A stretch of DNA of 64,000 bases. Origin: an uncultured Ignavibacteriota bacterium. GTDB lineage: Bacteria; Bacteroidota; Ignavibacteria; UBA10030; UBA8401. Positions 30,563 through 34,079 of this stretch are shown here, one piece after another. The notes beneath the pieces were generated by a model. The model did no database searches. It was not told the origin of the DNA and saw only the letters and a program-made list of their open reading frames with translations. The stretch is from assembly GCA_903884005.1 (NCBI GenBank), contig CAISDA010000040.1, positions 127,539 to 191,538 of the forward strand. Reading direction: 5' to 3'. Position numbers and translations under genes: made by a program. Each line of letters opens with the position of its first letter. Within the stretch, counting starts at the first letter, position 1.

Positions 30563-31387
30563 TCACTTGGCCTTTGCCAGAGCGATCCTCTGCTTCAGTG
30601 CGGTCGATAAGACCTTCACCGATTTTGGCTTCGATGTCTTCGATTTTTCAACGAGCAATTTTAATCTTTTAATTTCGGGATCTGTCAGAAACCGCCACTT
30701 GCCTCTTGCCAGTCCATCGGCCGTCACGCCACCGTAACTGACACGGTGCAATTTCATGATCTCGTACCCGAGCGTTTCGAACATCCTGCGGACCTGACGG
30801 TTGCGCCCTTCGTGGATCGTGACGACGATTTCCTTGTTTTTTGTTCCTGGAATAGGCTCGATGCTGGCCGGAGCTGTTTTCCCGTCCTCGAGGTAAATGC
30901 CCTTCTGAAGTTTGTCCCGATGGTCCTCTTCCAATGAATGGTCCAGCGAGACGTGGTATATTTTTTTCACTTCGCTCGACGGATGCATCAGCTTCGTCGC
31001 AAGAAATCCGTCGTTGGTGAACAAGAGCACGCCGGTCGTATTACGGTCGAGCCGTCCGATCGGAAATACTCTTTCCTTGATCGTGATCAGCTCGTAGACG
31101 GTGCGCCGTTCCTTTTCATCCTTCGCCGTTGTGATATAATCTTTTGGCTTGTTCATCAGGATGTAGAGCATGTGCTCGGCGATCGCCACGCGCTTGCCGC
31201 GCACTGTGACGGTATCGACAGACGGATCGACCTGTGTGCCAAGATCTTCGACGACCTTCCCGTTCACTTTCACATTTCCCGCGCGGATGACTTCTTCGGC
31301 TGCCCGGCGCGATGCGATGCCGGACATTGCAAGGAAACGGTTTATTCGAACAGTTTTTTGAAGAACGTCTTTATTTTTGTTTTCCAC
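30563..31387 (-). CDS. rluB: RsuA/RluB-family pseudouridine synthase
   Basis: S4 domain RINRFLAMSGIASRRAAEEVI; catalytic FPIGRLDRNTTGVLLFTND; EGRNRQVRRMFE. GTG start. Confidence 0.94.
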   Translation of the reverse strand: MENKNKDVLQKTVRINRFLAMSGIASRRAAEEVIRAGNVKVNGKVVEDLGTQVDPSVDTVTVRGKRVAIAEHMLYILMNKPKDYITTAKDEKERRTVYELITIKERVFPIGRLDRNTTGVLLFTNDGFLATKLMHPSSEVKKIYHVSLDHSLEEDHRDKLQKGIYLEDGKTAPASIEPIPGTKNKEIVVTIHEGRNRQVRRMFETLGYEIMKLHRVSYGGVTADGLARGKWRFLTDPEIKRLKLLVEKSKTSKPKSVKVLSTALKQRIALAKAK

Positions 31388-33348
31388 TTACTCCAGCCTT
31401 TCTCAGATGTAGGTTCTATCCCGCCGTTGTTGGAATCGGATTGCGTTCCGTCTTCGGCAGACATGGTGTGTATCTCACGTTCATCGGAGACCGTTGCGTC
31501 TCCGTCTTCTGCCATACCGCGTTCGTGTGCGGCGGCGTGGTCGCCTGCAGCGGCCATGATCTCTGCGCCCGAAGCATTGCTACCGTCAGGCACTGTGGCC
31601 ACCCCGACGTCGAGCTCTGCATCACCGGCAACGGCCTCGGCGGGTGCCGTCTCTTTAAGGACTGTCTCCGCATCCGGCGCATCATCGGCCGCGCGTTCTT
31701 CACGGTCGTCCTCTTCCGCTACGCGGTCATCGTGCACCGGTTCGTCGTGAAGCGTTTCTGTCAGCACAGCGTCTTCGTTCGGAGCGTCGTCAGGCGTTTC
31801 TGTCAGCACAGCGTCTTCGATCGGAGCGTCGTCTGATGCGGCCTCAGCAGCAAGGGCAAGATCCGCGGCCTCTTGTTCGTCTGCGATAGTCTTCAGCACC
31901 CATGCATTGGTTGCTGCGTCATCATCCTCCGCGTCTGTGCTCGCCGGGACGCGGGGCGCCGAAGCAACGTCGAGTGTTTCTGTGAGCACCGGTTCATCGT
32001 CATCAGCGTCTGCGATCGCCGTTAATTCCCGTGTTTCATCATCGCTTTGTATCCCGGCCGCTACCGGTTCATCGTCATCAGCGTCTGCGATCGCCGTTAA
32101 TTCCCGTGTTTCATCATCGCTTTGTTTCCCGGCCGCTACCGGTTCATCGTCATCAGCGTCTGCGATCGCCGTTAATTCCCGTGTTTCATCATCGCTTTGT
32201 TTCCCGGCCGCTACCGGTTCATCAACGCCCGCTTCTAAGGCATCCGGCCGTTCGATCGCTGCGGCAGGTTCCGCCGTTTCTATTTCGGCCGGTTGGAGAT
32301 TCGCGGCCTCTGTTGTTTCCGGAAGCACGATCGCCAGTGAAGCGTCGGACGGAACGACGCCCGTTACCGGGAGCGCGCCGGGTGCACCGGCCACTATCGT
32401 CCGCGGCGCATTCTGGCGCAGCGGTGGACGTGACCCGGAAGGCTTCTGTCCGCCTTCCAATTTTTGTGACAGCTCGTCCTTGAACTCAAGCTCCTGCTGC
32501 TCGGCGAGCATTCGTTTCTCGACTTCCAGTTCAGTTTCACCGATGAGTTCTTCGATCTCTCTCGGCTTCGGCAGGTCTGTGATCTCGTTCAGGCCGAAAT
32601 GTTTAAGGAATTCGTCCGTCGTTCCATAGAGCAAGGGCCGTCCCGGAGTGCTTGCACGGCCGGTAATGGTGATCAGATTCTTTTCCAGCAGCGTTTTAAC
32701 GATGTAATCGGCATTCACTCCGCGTATGAATTCAACTTCCGATTTTGTGATCGGCTGCTTGTAGGCGATGATGGCAAGCGATTCAATGGCGGTGGCCGAC
32801 AATTTCCTTCGTGCTTTTTCTTTGGCGAGCTTCCCGACAAAGACTGAATATTTCGCCTTTGTGGCAAAGACGAATCCGCCCGCAATGGGAGCAATATGAA
32901 ATGCCCTGTCGGCATATGCGGCGTTGATCGCCGCGACTGACTTTTTCACGCCGTCGGTGGAGGCACGAATCCGATTATCTTCAACCCGATCCTTATTCAC
33001 ATCGTCGATGATCTGGCGTATGAATTTGTTCGAGATGGGCTCGTCCGATGCGAAGATCAACGCTTCGACAATCGACCTGAGTTCCGATTCCTGCTCGGTG
33101 GTGATGGGCTGAACGTTTTCCTCGGCGTCATCCACAGCTGAAGTTGCATCTTCAGAGGTTTCTTCCACCGCTGCGGGAGCCGTCTCCTGTCCGATTGCTC
33201 CTGCGGCGTCAGCGTCTTCCGCCGCTGTAATTGTGGTCACGGTGCTGGGTTCGGGTATCGGCGTCAGTGCAACGGACAACCGAGTGTCTTCGGGTCCGGC
33301 ACCGGTATTGATGGGAAGCATTGCGGGCATCTCCGGTATGTCGCTCAT
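31342..33348 (-). CDS. scpB: Segregation and condensation protein B with long acidic N- and C-terminal extensions
   Basis: Core SIVEALIFASDEPIS...AYKQPITKSEVEFIRGVNADYIVKTLLEKNLITITGRASTPGRPLLYGTTDEFLKHFGL; start MSDIPEMP at 33348 overlaps the scpA stop. Confidence 0.93.
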   Translation of the reverse strand: MSDIPEMPAMLPINTGAGPEDTRLSVALTPIPEPSTVTTITAAEDADAAGAIGQETAPAAVEETSEDATSAVDDAEENVQPITTEQESELRSIVEALIFASDEPISNKFIRQIIDDVNKDRVEDNRIRASTDGVKKSVAAINAAYADRAFHIAPIAGGFVFATKAKYSVFVGKLAKEKARRKLSATAIESLAIIAYKQPITKSEVEFIRGVNADYIVKTLLEKNLITITGRASTPGRPLLYGTTDEFLKHFGLNEITDLPKPREIEELIGETELEVEKRMLAEQQELEFKDELSQKLEGGQKPSGSRPPLRQNAPRTIVAGAPGALPVTGVVPSDASLAIVLPETTEAANLQPAEIETAEPAAAIERPDALEAGVDEPVAAGKQSDDETRELTAIADADDDEPVAAGKQSDDETRELTAIADADDDEPVAAGIQSDDETRELTAIADADDDEPVLTETLDVASAPRVPASTDAEDDDAATNAWVLKTIADEQEAADLALAAEAASDDAPIEDAVLTETPDDAPNEDAVLTETLHDEPVHDDRVAEEDDREERAADDAPDAETVLKETAPAEAVAGDAELDVGVATVPDGSNASGAEIMAAAGDHAAAHERGMAEDGDATVSDEREIHTMSAEDGTQSDSNNGGIEPTSEKGWSKWKTKIKTFFKKLFE
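31752..31835. repeat. Two near-identical 42-bp in-frame direct repeats in scpB
   Basis: gcgtttctgtcagcacagcgtcttcg(t/a)tcggagcgtcgtc repeated at 31752 and 31794 (encodes DDAP(I/N)EDAVLTET). Confidence 0.9.
31991..32215. repeat. Three tandem 75-bp in-frame repeats in scpB
   Basis: Units at 31991, 32066 and 32141; read by eye only one base differs (atccc vs ttccc); encodes EPVAAG(K/I)QSDDETRELTAIADADDD. Confidence 0.95.
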
Positions 33349-34079
33349 ACGACTCCCTCGGGCATTTTCAAGATGATAATGTCGTCGAAGCATTCCACTT
33401 GACGGATAAGCACTTGTTTATTCCGAATTAATTCCAGGAGAGCAAGAAATGTGACAACGATGCGGACCTTGTCTGCGATCATCGAGGCAATTTCGTAGAA
33501 TGTCGATTCGTTTTTTTCGGCAAGGAACGCCATCACAAATGCGATCTGTTCATCCACGGTCACATTGAGCTTGTTGATCTCGTGCACGTGCTTGCGCGGC
33601 ATCCGGTCCACCGTATACTTGAACGCAGCGATGAGGTCGAAGAGCGTGACATCGCGTAGAAGATTTTCTTCCTCGTCCGCTTCCACCAGTTTCACATCGT
33701 GCTCAAAATTTCCGCGATAATAAATGCGCGCCTGCGCCCGCTGCAGCGTGTCCATTTTGATCGCCATTTCCTTGTAGCGCTTGTACTCCAGAAGGCGCCT
33801 CACCAATTCCGCCCTCGGGTCGAGCTCTTCTTCCTCGGCGCCCTCGGGTTTGGGCAGGAGCATCTGCACCTTGATCTGCATCAGTGTCGCAGCGGTCACG
33901 ATGAAATCGCCGGCGATGTCCAGGTCAAGTTGCTGGAGGTACTGCAGGTATTCAAGAAAATCTTTCGTGATCTTCGCGATCGGAATGTCATAAATATCCA
34001 GCTCGTCCCGTTTAATAAAAAACAGGAGGAGATCGAGAGGGCCTTCAAAATCAGAAAGAGAAACGCGGTACATGCGCAA
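33345..34079 (-). CDS. scpA: Segregation and condensation protein A
   Basis: FEGPLDLLLFFIKRDELDIYDIPIAKITKDFLEYL; adjacent to scpB. Confidence 0.95.
   Translation of the reverse strand: MRMYRVSLSDFEGPLDLLLFFIKRDELDIYDIPIAKITKDFLEYLQYLQQLDLDIAGDFIVTAATLMQIKVQMLLPKPEGAEEEELDPRAELVRRLLEYKRYKEMAIKMDTLQRAQARIYYRGNFEHDVKLVEADEEENLLRDVTLFDLIAAFKYTVDRMPRKHVHEINKLNVTVDEQIAFVMAFLAEKNESTFYEIASMIADKVRIVVTFLALLELIRNKQVLIRQVECFDDIIILKMPEGVV

What the first reader, a model, noticed from the sequence alone, without database searches (positions are those of the whole stretch)
31991..32215. Near-identical 3x75-bp in-frame tandem repeat in the acidic C-terminal extension of ScpB
Three 25-codon units encoding EPVAAG(K/I)QSDDETRELTAIADADDD differ by one base in 225 bp as read by eye. 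Near-perfect DNA identity in a disordered acidic region implies recent expansion or homogenisation, so copy number could vary between strains and change the linker length of a condensin subunit. Typical ScpB proteins are far shorter (core domain only).
Basis: partly seen in the sequence, partly recalled or inferred. Interest (0 to 1): 0.72.

Follow-up and report, generated by a model that had tools for sequence, protein, structure and literature searches.

The report
Condensin subunit with membrane-anchor-like tail
The repeat is real: three near-identical 75-bp copies in a long floppy spacer of the condensin protein ScpB. The more informative feature is what the spacer leads to, a short conserved C-terminal helix shared by two bacterial families that looks like the membrane anchors of MinD and FtsA and may tie the chromosome-folding machine to the cell membrane.

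Summary
Window 31996-32220 (- strand) is three in-frame 75-bp units in ScpB, two identical and the third one base different. A decayed fourth copy follows. The unit occurs in none of the other 97 genomes of the order. Eight of 20 ScpB loci in this family carry in-frame tandem arrays, mostly with other units, so the array is an ordinary, lineage-private expansion in a disordered spacer. Strain-level copy-number variation could not be tested.

In every genome of two related families where ScpB was found (51 of 51), it ends in one conserved 18-residue peptide, xWxxWKxK[IVL]QxF[FI]xK[LI]F. This is absent from the rest of the order and class. It is an amphipathic basic helix, gained once. It overlaps the start of rluB, but codon analysis shows that the ScpB reading frame is the conserved one.

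Best reading: a MinD/FtsA-like membrane-targeting helix on a variable tether, giving each ScpB dimer two weak anchors. The anatomy is shown; membrane binding is inferred. I found no report of it in the open-access papers searched.

The parts
   Evidence: Translation; Pfam PF04079 160 bits, residues 93-261; PDB ScpB 1t6s E 1e-27
32566..33072 (-). ScpB core (residues 93-261), double winged-helix domain
31402..32451 (-). Disordered acidic spacer (residues about 300-649), hypervariable between species
   Evidence: AlphaFold2 pLDDT about 31-45 and no secondary structure; net charge -75 over residues 301-650; length 94-352 aa in relatives
31996..32220 (-). Three 75-bp in-frame units (32146-32220, 32071-32145, 31996-32070)
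   Evidence: identical except one A-to-T in the third unit
31921..31995 (-). Decayed fourth unit, EPVLTETLDVASAPRVPASTDAEDD
   Evidence: 42/75 identical in register, best in-frame match in the gene outside the array
31743..31833 (-). Second in-frame tandem array, period 42 bp, 2.2 copies
31345..31398 (-). Conserved C-terminal amphipathic basic helix GWSKWKTKIKTFFKKLFE (residues 651-668)
   Evidence: In 51 of 51 genomes of two families where ScpB was found; helix, pLDDT 73-81; muH 0.66, charge +5
30563..31387 (-). rluB-type pseudouridine synthase (S4 + PseudoU_synth_2); its GTG start lies inside the scpB tail, 46-bp overlap
33345..34079 (-). scpA, upstream partner in the same operon
   Evidence: Pfam SMC_ScpA 138 bits

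Best explanation
The repeat is a recent in-frame tandem expansion in a disordered spacer that joins the ScpB double winged-helix core to a conserved C-terminal amphipathic helix. The helix most likely acts as a weak membrane-targeting sequence of the MinD/FtsA type. A ScpB dimer carries two such tails, so an assembled SMC-ScpAB complex could be held at the inner membrane by avidity, while the long flexible spacer lets the SMC ring work on DNA. Spacer sequence and length are almost free, so in-frame repeats are tolerated; the ends are not free. Shown: repeat, disorder prediction, conserved tail, single origin, selection on the ScpB frame, amphipathic helix prediction. Inferred: membrane binding, two-anchor avidity, effect on the chromosome.
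For: Every genome of families f1 and f5 in which ScpB was found (20 and 31) has the tail at E of about 1e-7 or better. None of the other 47 genomes of the order reaches E 0.001, and neither does any other genome among 391 sampled from the class. In the 32 complete tails read in detail, seven positions are 100% hydrophobic and all fall in a 140-degree arc; three positions are 97-100% Lys/Arg. Helical moment is 0.46-0.71 and net charge +3 to +6; by the same measures the E. coli K-12 MinD and FtsA C-termini give 0.42/+2 and 0.56/+3. E. coli MinD ends KKGFLKRLFGG and this tail ends KIKTFFKKLFE. Of 52 long ORFs in the window it is the only one whose C-terminus passes D >= 1.34 and muH >= 0.5. AlphaFold2 makes residues 650-667 a helix with pLDDT 73-81 after 350 disordered residues. 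The tail is conserved in the ScpB frame: nearest-neighbour changes silent in ScpB but not rluB 62, the reverse 17, though 0.159 against 0.194 is expected without constraint. One gain on a ScpB+RluB tree. A single MinD helix binds membrane only weakly and works as a dimer (PMC6803595); RocS, a chromosome-segregation protein, needs multivalent C-terminal helices (PMC11500499); Noc uses a weak amphipathic helix to bring DNA to the membrane (PMC4331003).
Against: No experiment. A hydrophobic-basic helix could equally dock on a protein. FtsA in the same genomes ends in a different helix (...RMKGWFDEL), so the tail is not a shared anchor module of the lineage. The upstream part of the tail in f1 also carries a GGAG ribosome-site-like motif 7 bases before the rluB start, so some conservation there may serve rluB. 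Two small-genome members (L009, L017) have nearly neutral spacers, so acidity is not strictly kept.
Confidence: 0.58

Rival explanations
1. The tail is a short linear motif that docks on a protein partner (SMC, ScpA, ParB, or the ScpB dimer itself), and the spacer is a fishing line; membrane plays no part.
For: The same sequence features (amphipathic helix at the end of a disordered arm) fit protein docking. The position-specific conservation (W2, W5, K6, K8, F17) is tighter than many membrane helices need; FtsA in the same genomes keeps a different C-terminal helix.
Against: Several of the hydrophobic positions allow exchange within the class (F/I/L, I/V/L), with lysines flanking the face, which is the membrane-helix pattern. 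AlphaFold2 shows no second structured element in the spacer.
Confidence: 0.27
2. The tail is a basic segment that binds DNA or folds back on the acidic spacer as an autoinhibitory switch.
For: Tail charge +3 to +6; window spacer net -75.
Against: Seven invariantly hydrophobic positions are not needed for this. Two relatives (L009, L017) have the tail with near-neutral spacers.
Confidence: 0.08
3. The tail's conservation is a by-product of overlapping the rluB start (overprinting), with no function in ScpB.
For: The overlap is geometrically fixed: in every tailed locus with a readable rluB the RIN/RLN codon of RluB lies exactly 7 bp before the scpB stop end, and start codons come from the NTG|G of the Trp codons. 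A GGAG motif lies 7 bp upstream in most f1 loci.
Against: ScpB-frame residues are far more conserved than rluB-frame ones over the overlap (identity 0.61 v 0.38, BLOSUM 3.9 v 1.9 per residue); substitutions are silent in ScpB 62:17. Codon-position entropy follows the ScpB frame (0.71/0.41/1.02). Trp is kept where its NTG is not a common start codon (L023, L027, L036: CTG) and where a stop follows in the rluB frame (L001, L015, L018).
Confidence: 0.03
4. The 3x75 repeat is an assembly artefact or a mis-collapsed copy number.
For: The array spans 225 bp with identical units 1 and 2, so short reads could not fix the number. In other genomes contigs break inside this linker or next to it (G055, G021, G002).
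Against: One unit carries a distinguishing base, the frame is kept, a decayed fourth copy exists, and relatives have their own in-frame arrays in the same region.
Confidence: 0.06

Closest known systems
ScpB (Pfam PF04079), kleisin-associated subunit of SMC-ScpAB condensin; e.g. Chlorobium tepidum 1t6s, ScpAB core complex 3w6j
   Same: Core domain, operon with scpA, a full-length SMC in the genome
   Different: Adds an N-terminal disordered arm of about 85 aa, a 350-aa disordered spacer with tandem repeats, and a conserved amphipathic C-terminal helix absent from the other families of the order
MinD / FtsA C-terminal membrane-targeting sequences
   Same: Extreme C-terminal amphipathic basic helix after a variable segment; similar or higher helical moment and charge; similar letters to MinD (KKGFLKRLFGG v KIKTFFKKLFE)
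   Different: On a condensin subunit, behind a much longer spacer; membrane binding not shown
Noc and RocS (chromosome-associated proteins tied to the membrane by amphipathic helices; PMC4331003, PMC11500499)
   Same: A DNA-organising protein with a terminal amphipathic helix; weak helix made effective by multimerisation
   Different: No homology; those are separate DNA-binding proteins, not a subunit of the SMC motor
C. glutamicum MksBEFG condensin bound to polar DivIVA (PMC7083940)
   Same: A condensin-type complex brought to the cell periphery
   Different: Uses protein contact with DivIVA, not a helix of its own; a different SMC class

Membership tests
ScpB (SMC_ScpB) | Double winged-helix domain matching PF04079 | tested here: met
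   160 bits against cut-off 27.4; PDB and Foldseek hits to ScpB
ScpB (SMC_ScpB) | Operon with scpA and a canonical SMC in the genome | tested here: met
   ScpA directly upstream; SMC_prok_B 1047 bits, 1193-aa frame
ScpB (SMC_ScpB) | Dimerises and binds ScpA | not tested
   Only inferred from homologous structures
MinD/FtsA-type membrane-targeting sequence | C-terminal amphipathic helix with basic residues flanking the hydrophobic face, conserved across orthologues | tested here: met
MinD/FtsA-type membrane-targeting sequence | Homology to the MinD or FtsA anchor | tested here: inconclusive
   Too short; no PDB sequence match to the peptide at E<=10; letters resemble MinD by eye only
MinD/FtsA-type membrane-targeting sequence | Binds membrane and relocates a reporter | not testable with these tools
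   Needs bench work
In-frame coding tandem repeat (minisatellite) in a disordered region | Head-to-tail copies, period a multiple of three, near identity | tested here: met
In-frame coding tandem repeat (minisatellite) in a disordered region | Copy number polymorphic among strains | not testable with these tools
   No conspecific or congeneric ScpB held

The most novel reading that the evidence does not exclude
In two families of one order of Ignavibacteria-type Bacteroidota the SMC condensin has its own membrane anchor: each ScpB dimer carries two MinD-like helices on disordered tethers. Loop extrusion or loading would then happen at the envelope, and tether length, set partly by tandem-repeat number, would tune the reach.
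Probability: 0.5. Interest if true: 0.78.

Novelty: new variant of a known kind. Interest (0 to 1): 0.52.

Why it matters
Bacterial SMC-ScpAB is generally treated as a soluble nucleoid motor, recruited by ParB. A conserved built-in membrane-anchor-like helix on one subunit would be a direct link between chromosome folding and the envelope, and a one-peptide GFP fusion can test it. It also explains why the spacer tolerates fast repeat turnover: only its two ends are under constraint.

Tried and rejected
Same-genus comparison: G001 (71% complete) has no ScpB and no copy of the unit. PDB sequence search with the tail peptide: nothing at E<=10. Overlap-driven conservation was considered seriously and rejected by the two-frame substitution test. 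A dispersed or mobile repeat was rejected: the unit occurs only at this one locus in the genome. A lineage-wide anchor module was rejected: FtsA in the same genomes ends in a different helix, and no second protein in this genome matches the tail model even at E<=1. Paper searches for a ScpB amphipathic helix, C-terminal extension, membrane tether, disordered C-terminus or Ignavibacteria ScpB found no report of this feature, but only open-access text is held.

Full report
The observation. The window holds scpB on the - strand (31342-33348, 668 aa), in an operon with scpA upstream and an rluB-type pseudouridine synthase downstream. TRF finds one strong array, 31988-32223, period 75, 3.1 copies, 99%. 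In codon register the three units are 32146-32220, 32071-32145 and 31996-32070; the first two are identical and the third has one A-to-T change giving K to I. A fourth, decayed unit follows in register (42/75 identical; background mean 23.1, s.d. 4.5). A 42-bp in-frame array lies further on (31743-31833), and no tandem array occurs elsewhere in the 64 kb. The unit is found only here among 98 genomes of the order. So the array is real, recent and private to this lineage. Units 1 and 2 are identical, and about 170 bp separate the unique flank from the first distinguishing base, so a short-read assembly could have the number wrong; that is not checked here.

The setting. The core (residues 93-261) is a bona fide ScpB domain (PDB 1t6s and 3w6j), and the genome has one full SMC. 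AlphaFold2 with seven sequences gives a moderately confident partial core (blocks 74-81 for its N-terminal half, lower beyond), no structure for residues 300-649 (pLDDT about 31-45), and then a helix at 650-667 with pLDDT 73-81. Overall confidence is low (mean 45.9), as expected for a protein that is mostly disordered.

What relatives show. In the order, ScpB falls into two kinds. Families f2, f4 and f6 have short ScpB with about 40-85 residues after the core in the loci read. Families f1 (the window's) and f5 have long spacers, 94-352 residues in 31 measured proteins, with almost no alignable sequence in the spacer in f1 but the same last 18 residues. A model of those 18 residues finds 51 genomes of 98, all in f1 and f5, which are exactly the f1 and f5 genomes in which ScpB was found; no other genome of the order, nor of 391 sampled from the class, reaches E 0.001. 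In a 297-genome sample of the phylum most listed ScpB frames outside these families are 186-320 aa with a few up to 382; the longer ones read in full end in ordinary tails without the helix. On a tree of ScpB core plus RluB the tail needs one change, and f1 and f5 together are one side of a branch with support 100/99.

Repeats in the spacer. Eight of 20 f1 loci, and none of 14 f5 loci, have TRF arrays with a period divisible by three in the linker; the units are mostly unrelated (24, 27, 42, 48, 72, 75, 147 bp). The flanks of the same loci (113 kb) give arrays in only 4 of 97 pieces. So in-frame tandem duplication is a habit of this spacer in f1, and the window's array is the most uniform case seen.

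Is the tail a ScpB feature or a shadow of rluB? The start of rluB lies inside the tail codons, and in every tailed locus with a readable rluB the geometry is identical (RluB's R[IL]N codon 7 bp before the scpB stop end; starts at -55 or -46, both made from Trp TGG codons). This could create false conservation, so both frames were tested. Over the 33 bp between the -46 start and RIN, codon-position entropies are 0.71, 0.41 and 1.02 in the ScpB frame, that is highest at ScpB third positions, which are rluB first positions. Nearest-neighbour substitutions are silent in ScpB and not in rluB 62 times, the reverse 17 times, both-changing 31; without constraint the reverse class would be slightly the commoner (0.194 v 0.159). 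Trp is kept where the overlapping NTG is CTG, and where a stop codon follows the -55 position in the rluB frame. Caveat: f1 loci mostly carry GGAG 7 bp before the -46 start, so the WS pair in f1 may be held partly by rluB.

What the tail looks like. Seven of 18 positions are hydrophobic in all 32 tails and fall between 20 and 160 degrees on a helical wheel; positions 6, 8 and 15 are Lys/Arg in 97-100%. Moment 0.46-0.71, charge +3 to +6, discriminant D 1.43-2.59 (formula and the cut-off near 1.3 for lipid-binding helices are from memory of HeliQuest). The same measure gives 1.06 for E. coli MinD and 1.52 for FtsA, both known anchors. The letters resemble MinD (KKGFLKRLFGG) by eye; the peptide is too short to show homology.

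Mechanism. The parsimonious reading is a weak membrane anchor made effective by avidity: ScpB is a dimer in known structures (prior knowledge), so each complex has two helices, as MinD needs (PMC6803595), as RocS needs (PMC11500499) and as Noc achieves on DNA (PMC4331003). The spacer then needs length and disorder, not sequence, which fits the free repeat turnover. Membrane binding itself is an inference; docking on a protein is the main rival and is not excluded.

Known or new. I found no paper describing this in the library searched. Condensin brought to the periphery is known for MksBEFG through DivIVA (PMC7083940), not through a helix of the complex. I class the find as a new variant of a known kind: an ordinary ScpB core with a new appendage. 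The repeat alone would rate about 0.25; the conserved tail raises the interest to about 0.5.

Noticed in passing
window 31342-31387 and all tailed relatives: scpB and rluB overlap with invariant geometry; rluB start codons (ATG, GTG, TTG) are cut from Trp TGG codons of the scpB tail, while in tail-less families rluB lies at variable distance.
   Followed up: yes
L021-L049 (family f5), L002, L003, L009, L017: A short motif (K/N)SR(L/A)PHIP(K/R)(K/R)K recurs early in the spacer in f5 and in some f1 members; it is degenerate or lost in the window and its neighbours. Possible binding motif.
   Followed up: no
L102/L103 (G055), L016/L104 (G021), L019/L105 (G002): In three genomes the assembly breaks at or close to the ScpB linker, consistent with repeats or population variation there.
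   Followed up: partly
window 33090-33348: ScpB also has an N-terminal disordered acidic arm of about 85 residues (pLDDT about 40).
   Followed up: no
L118-L138: FtsA of the same family ends in its own conserved C-terminal helix (RMKGWFDEL), after a variable segment.
   Followed up: partly
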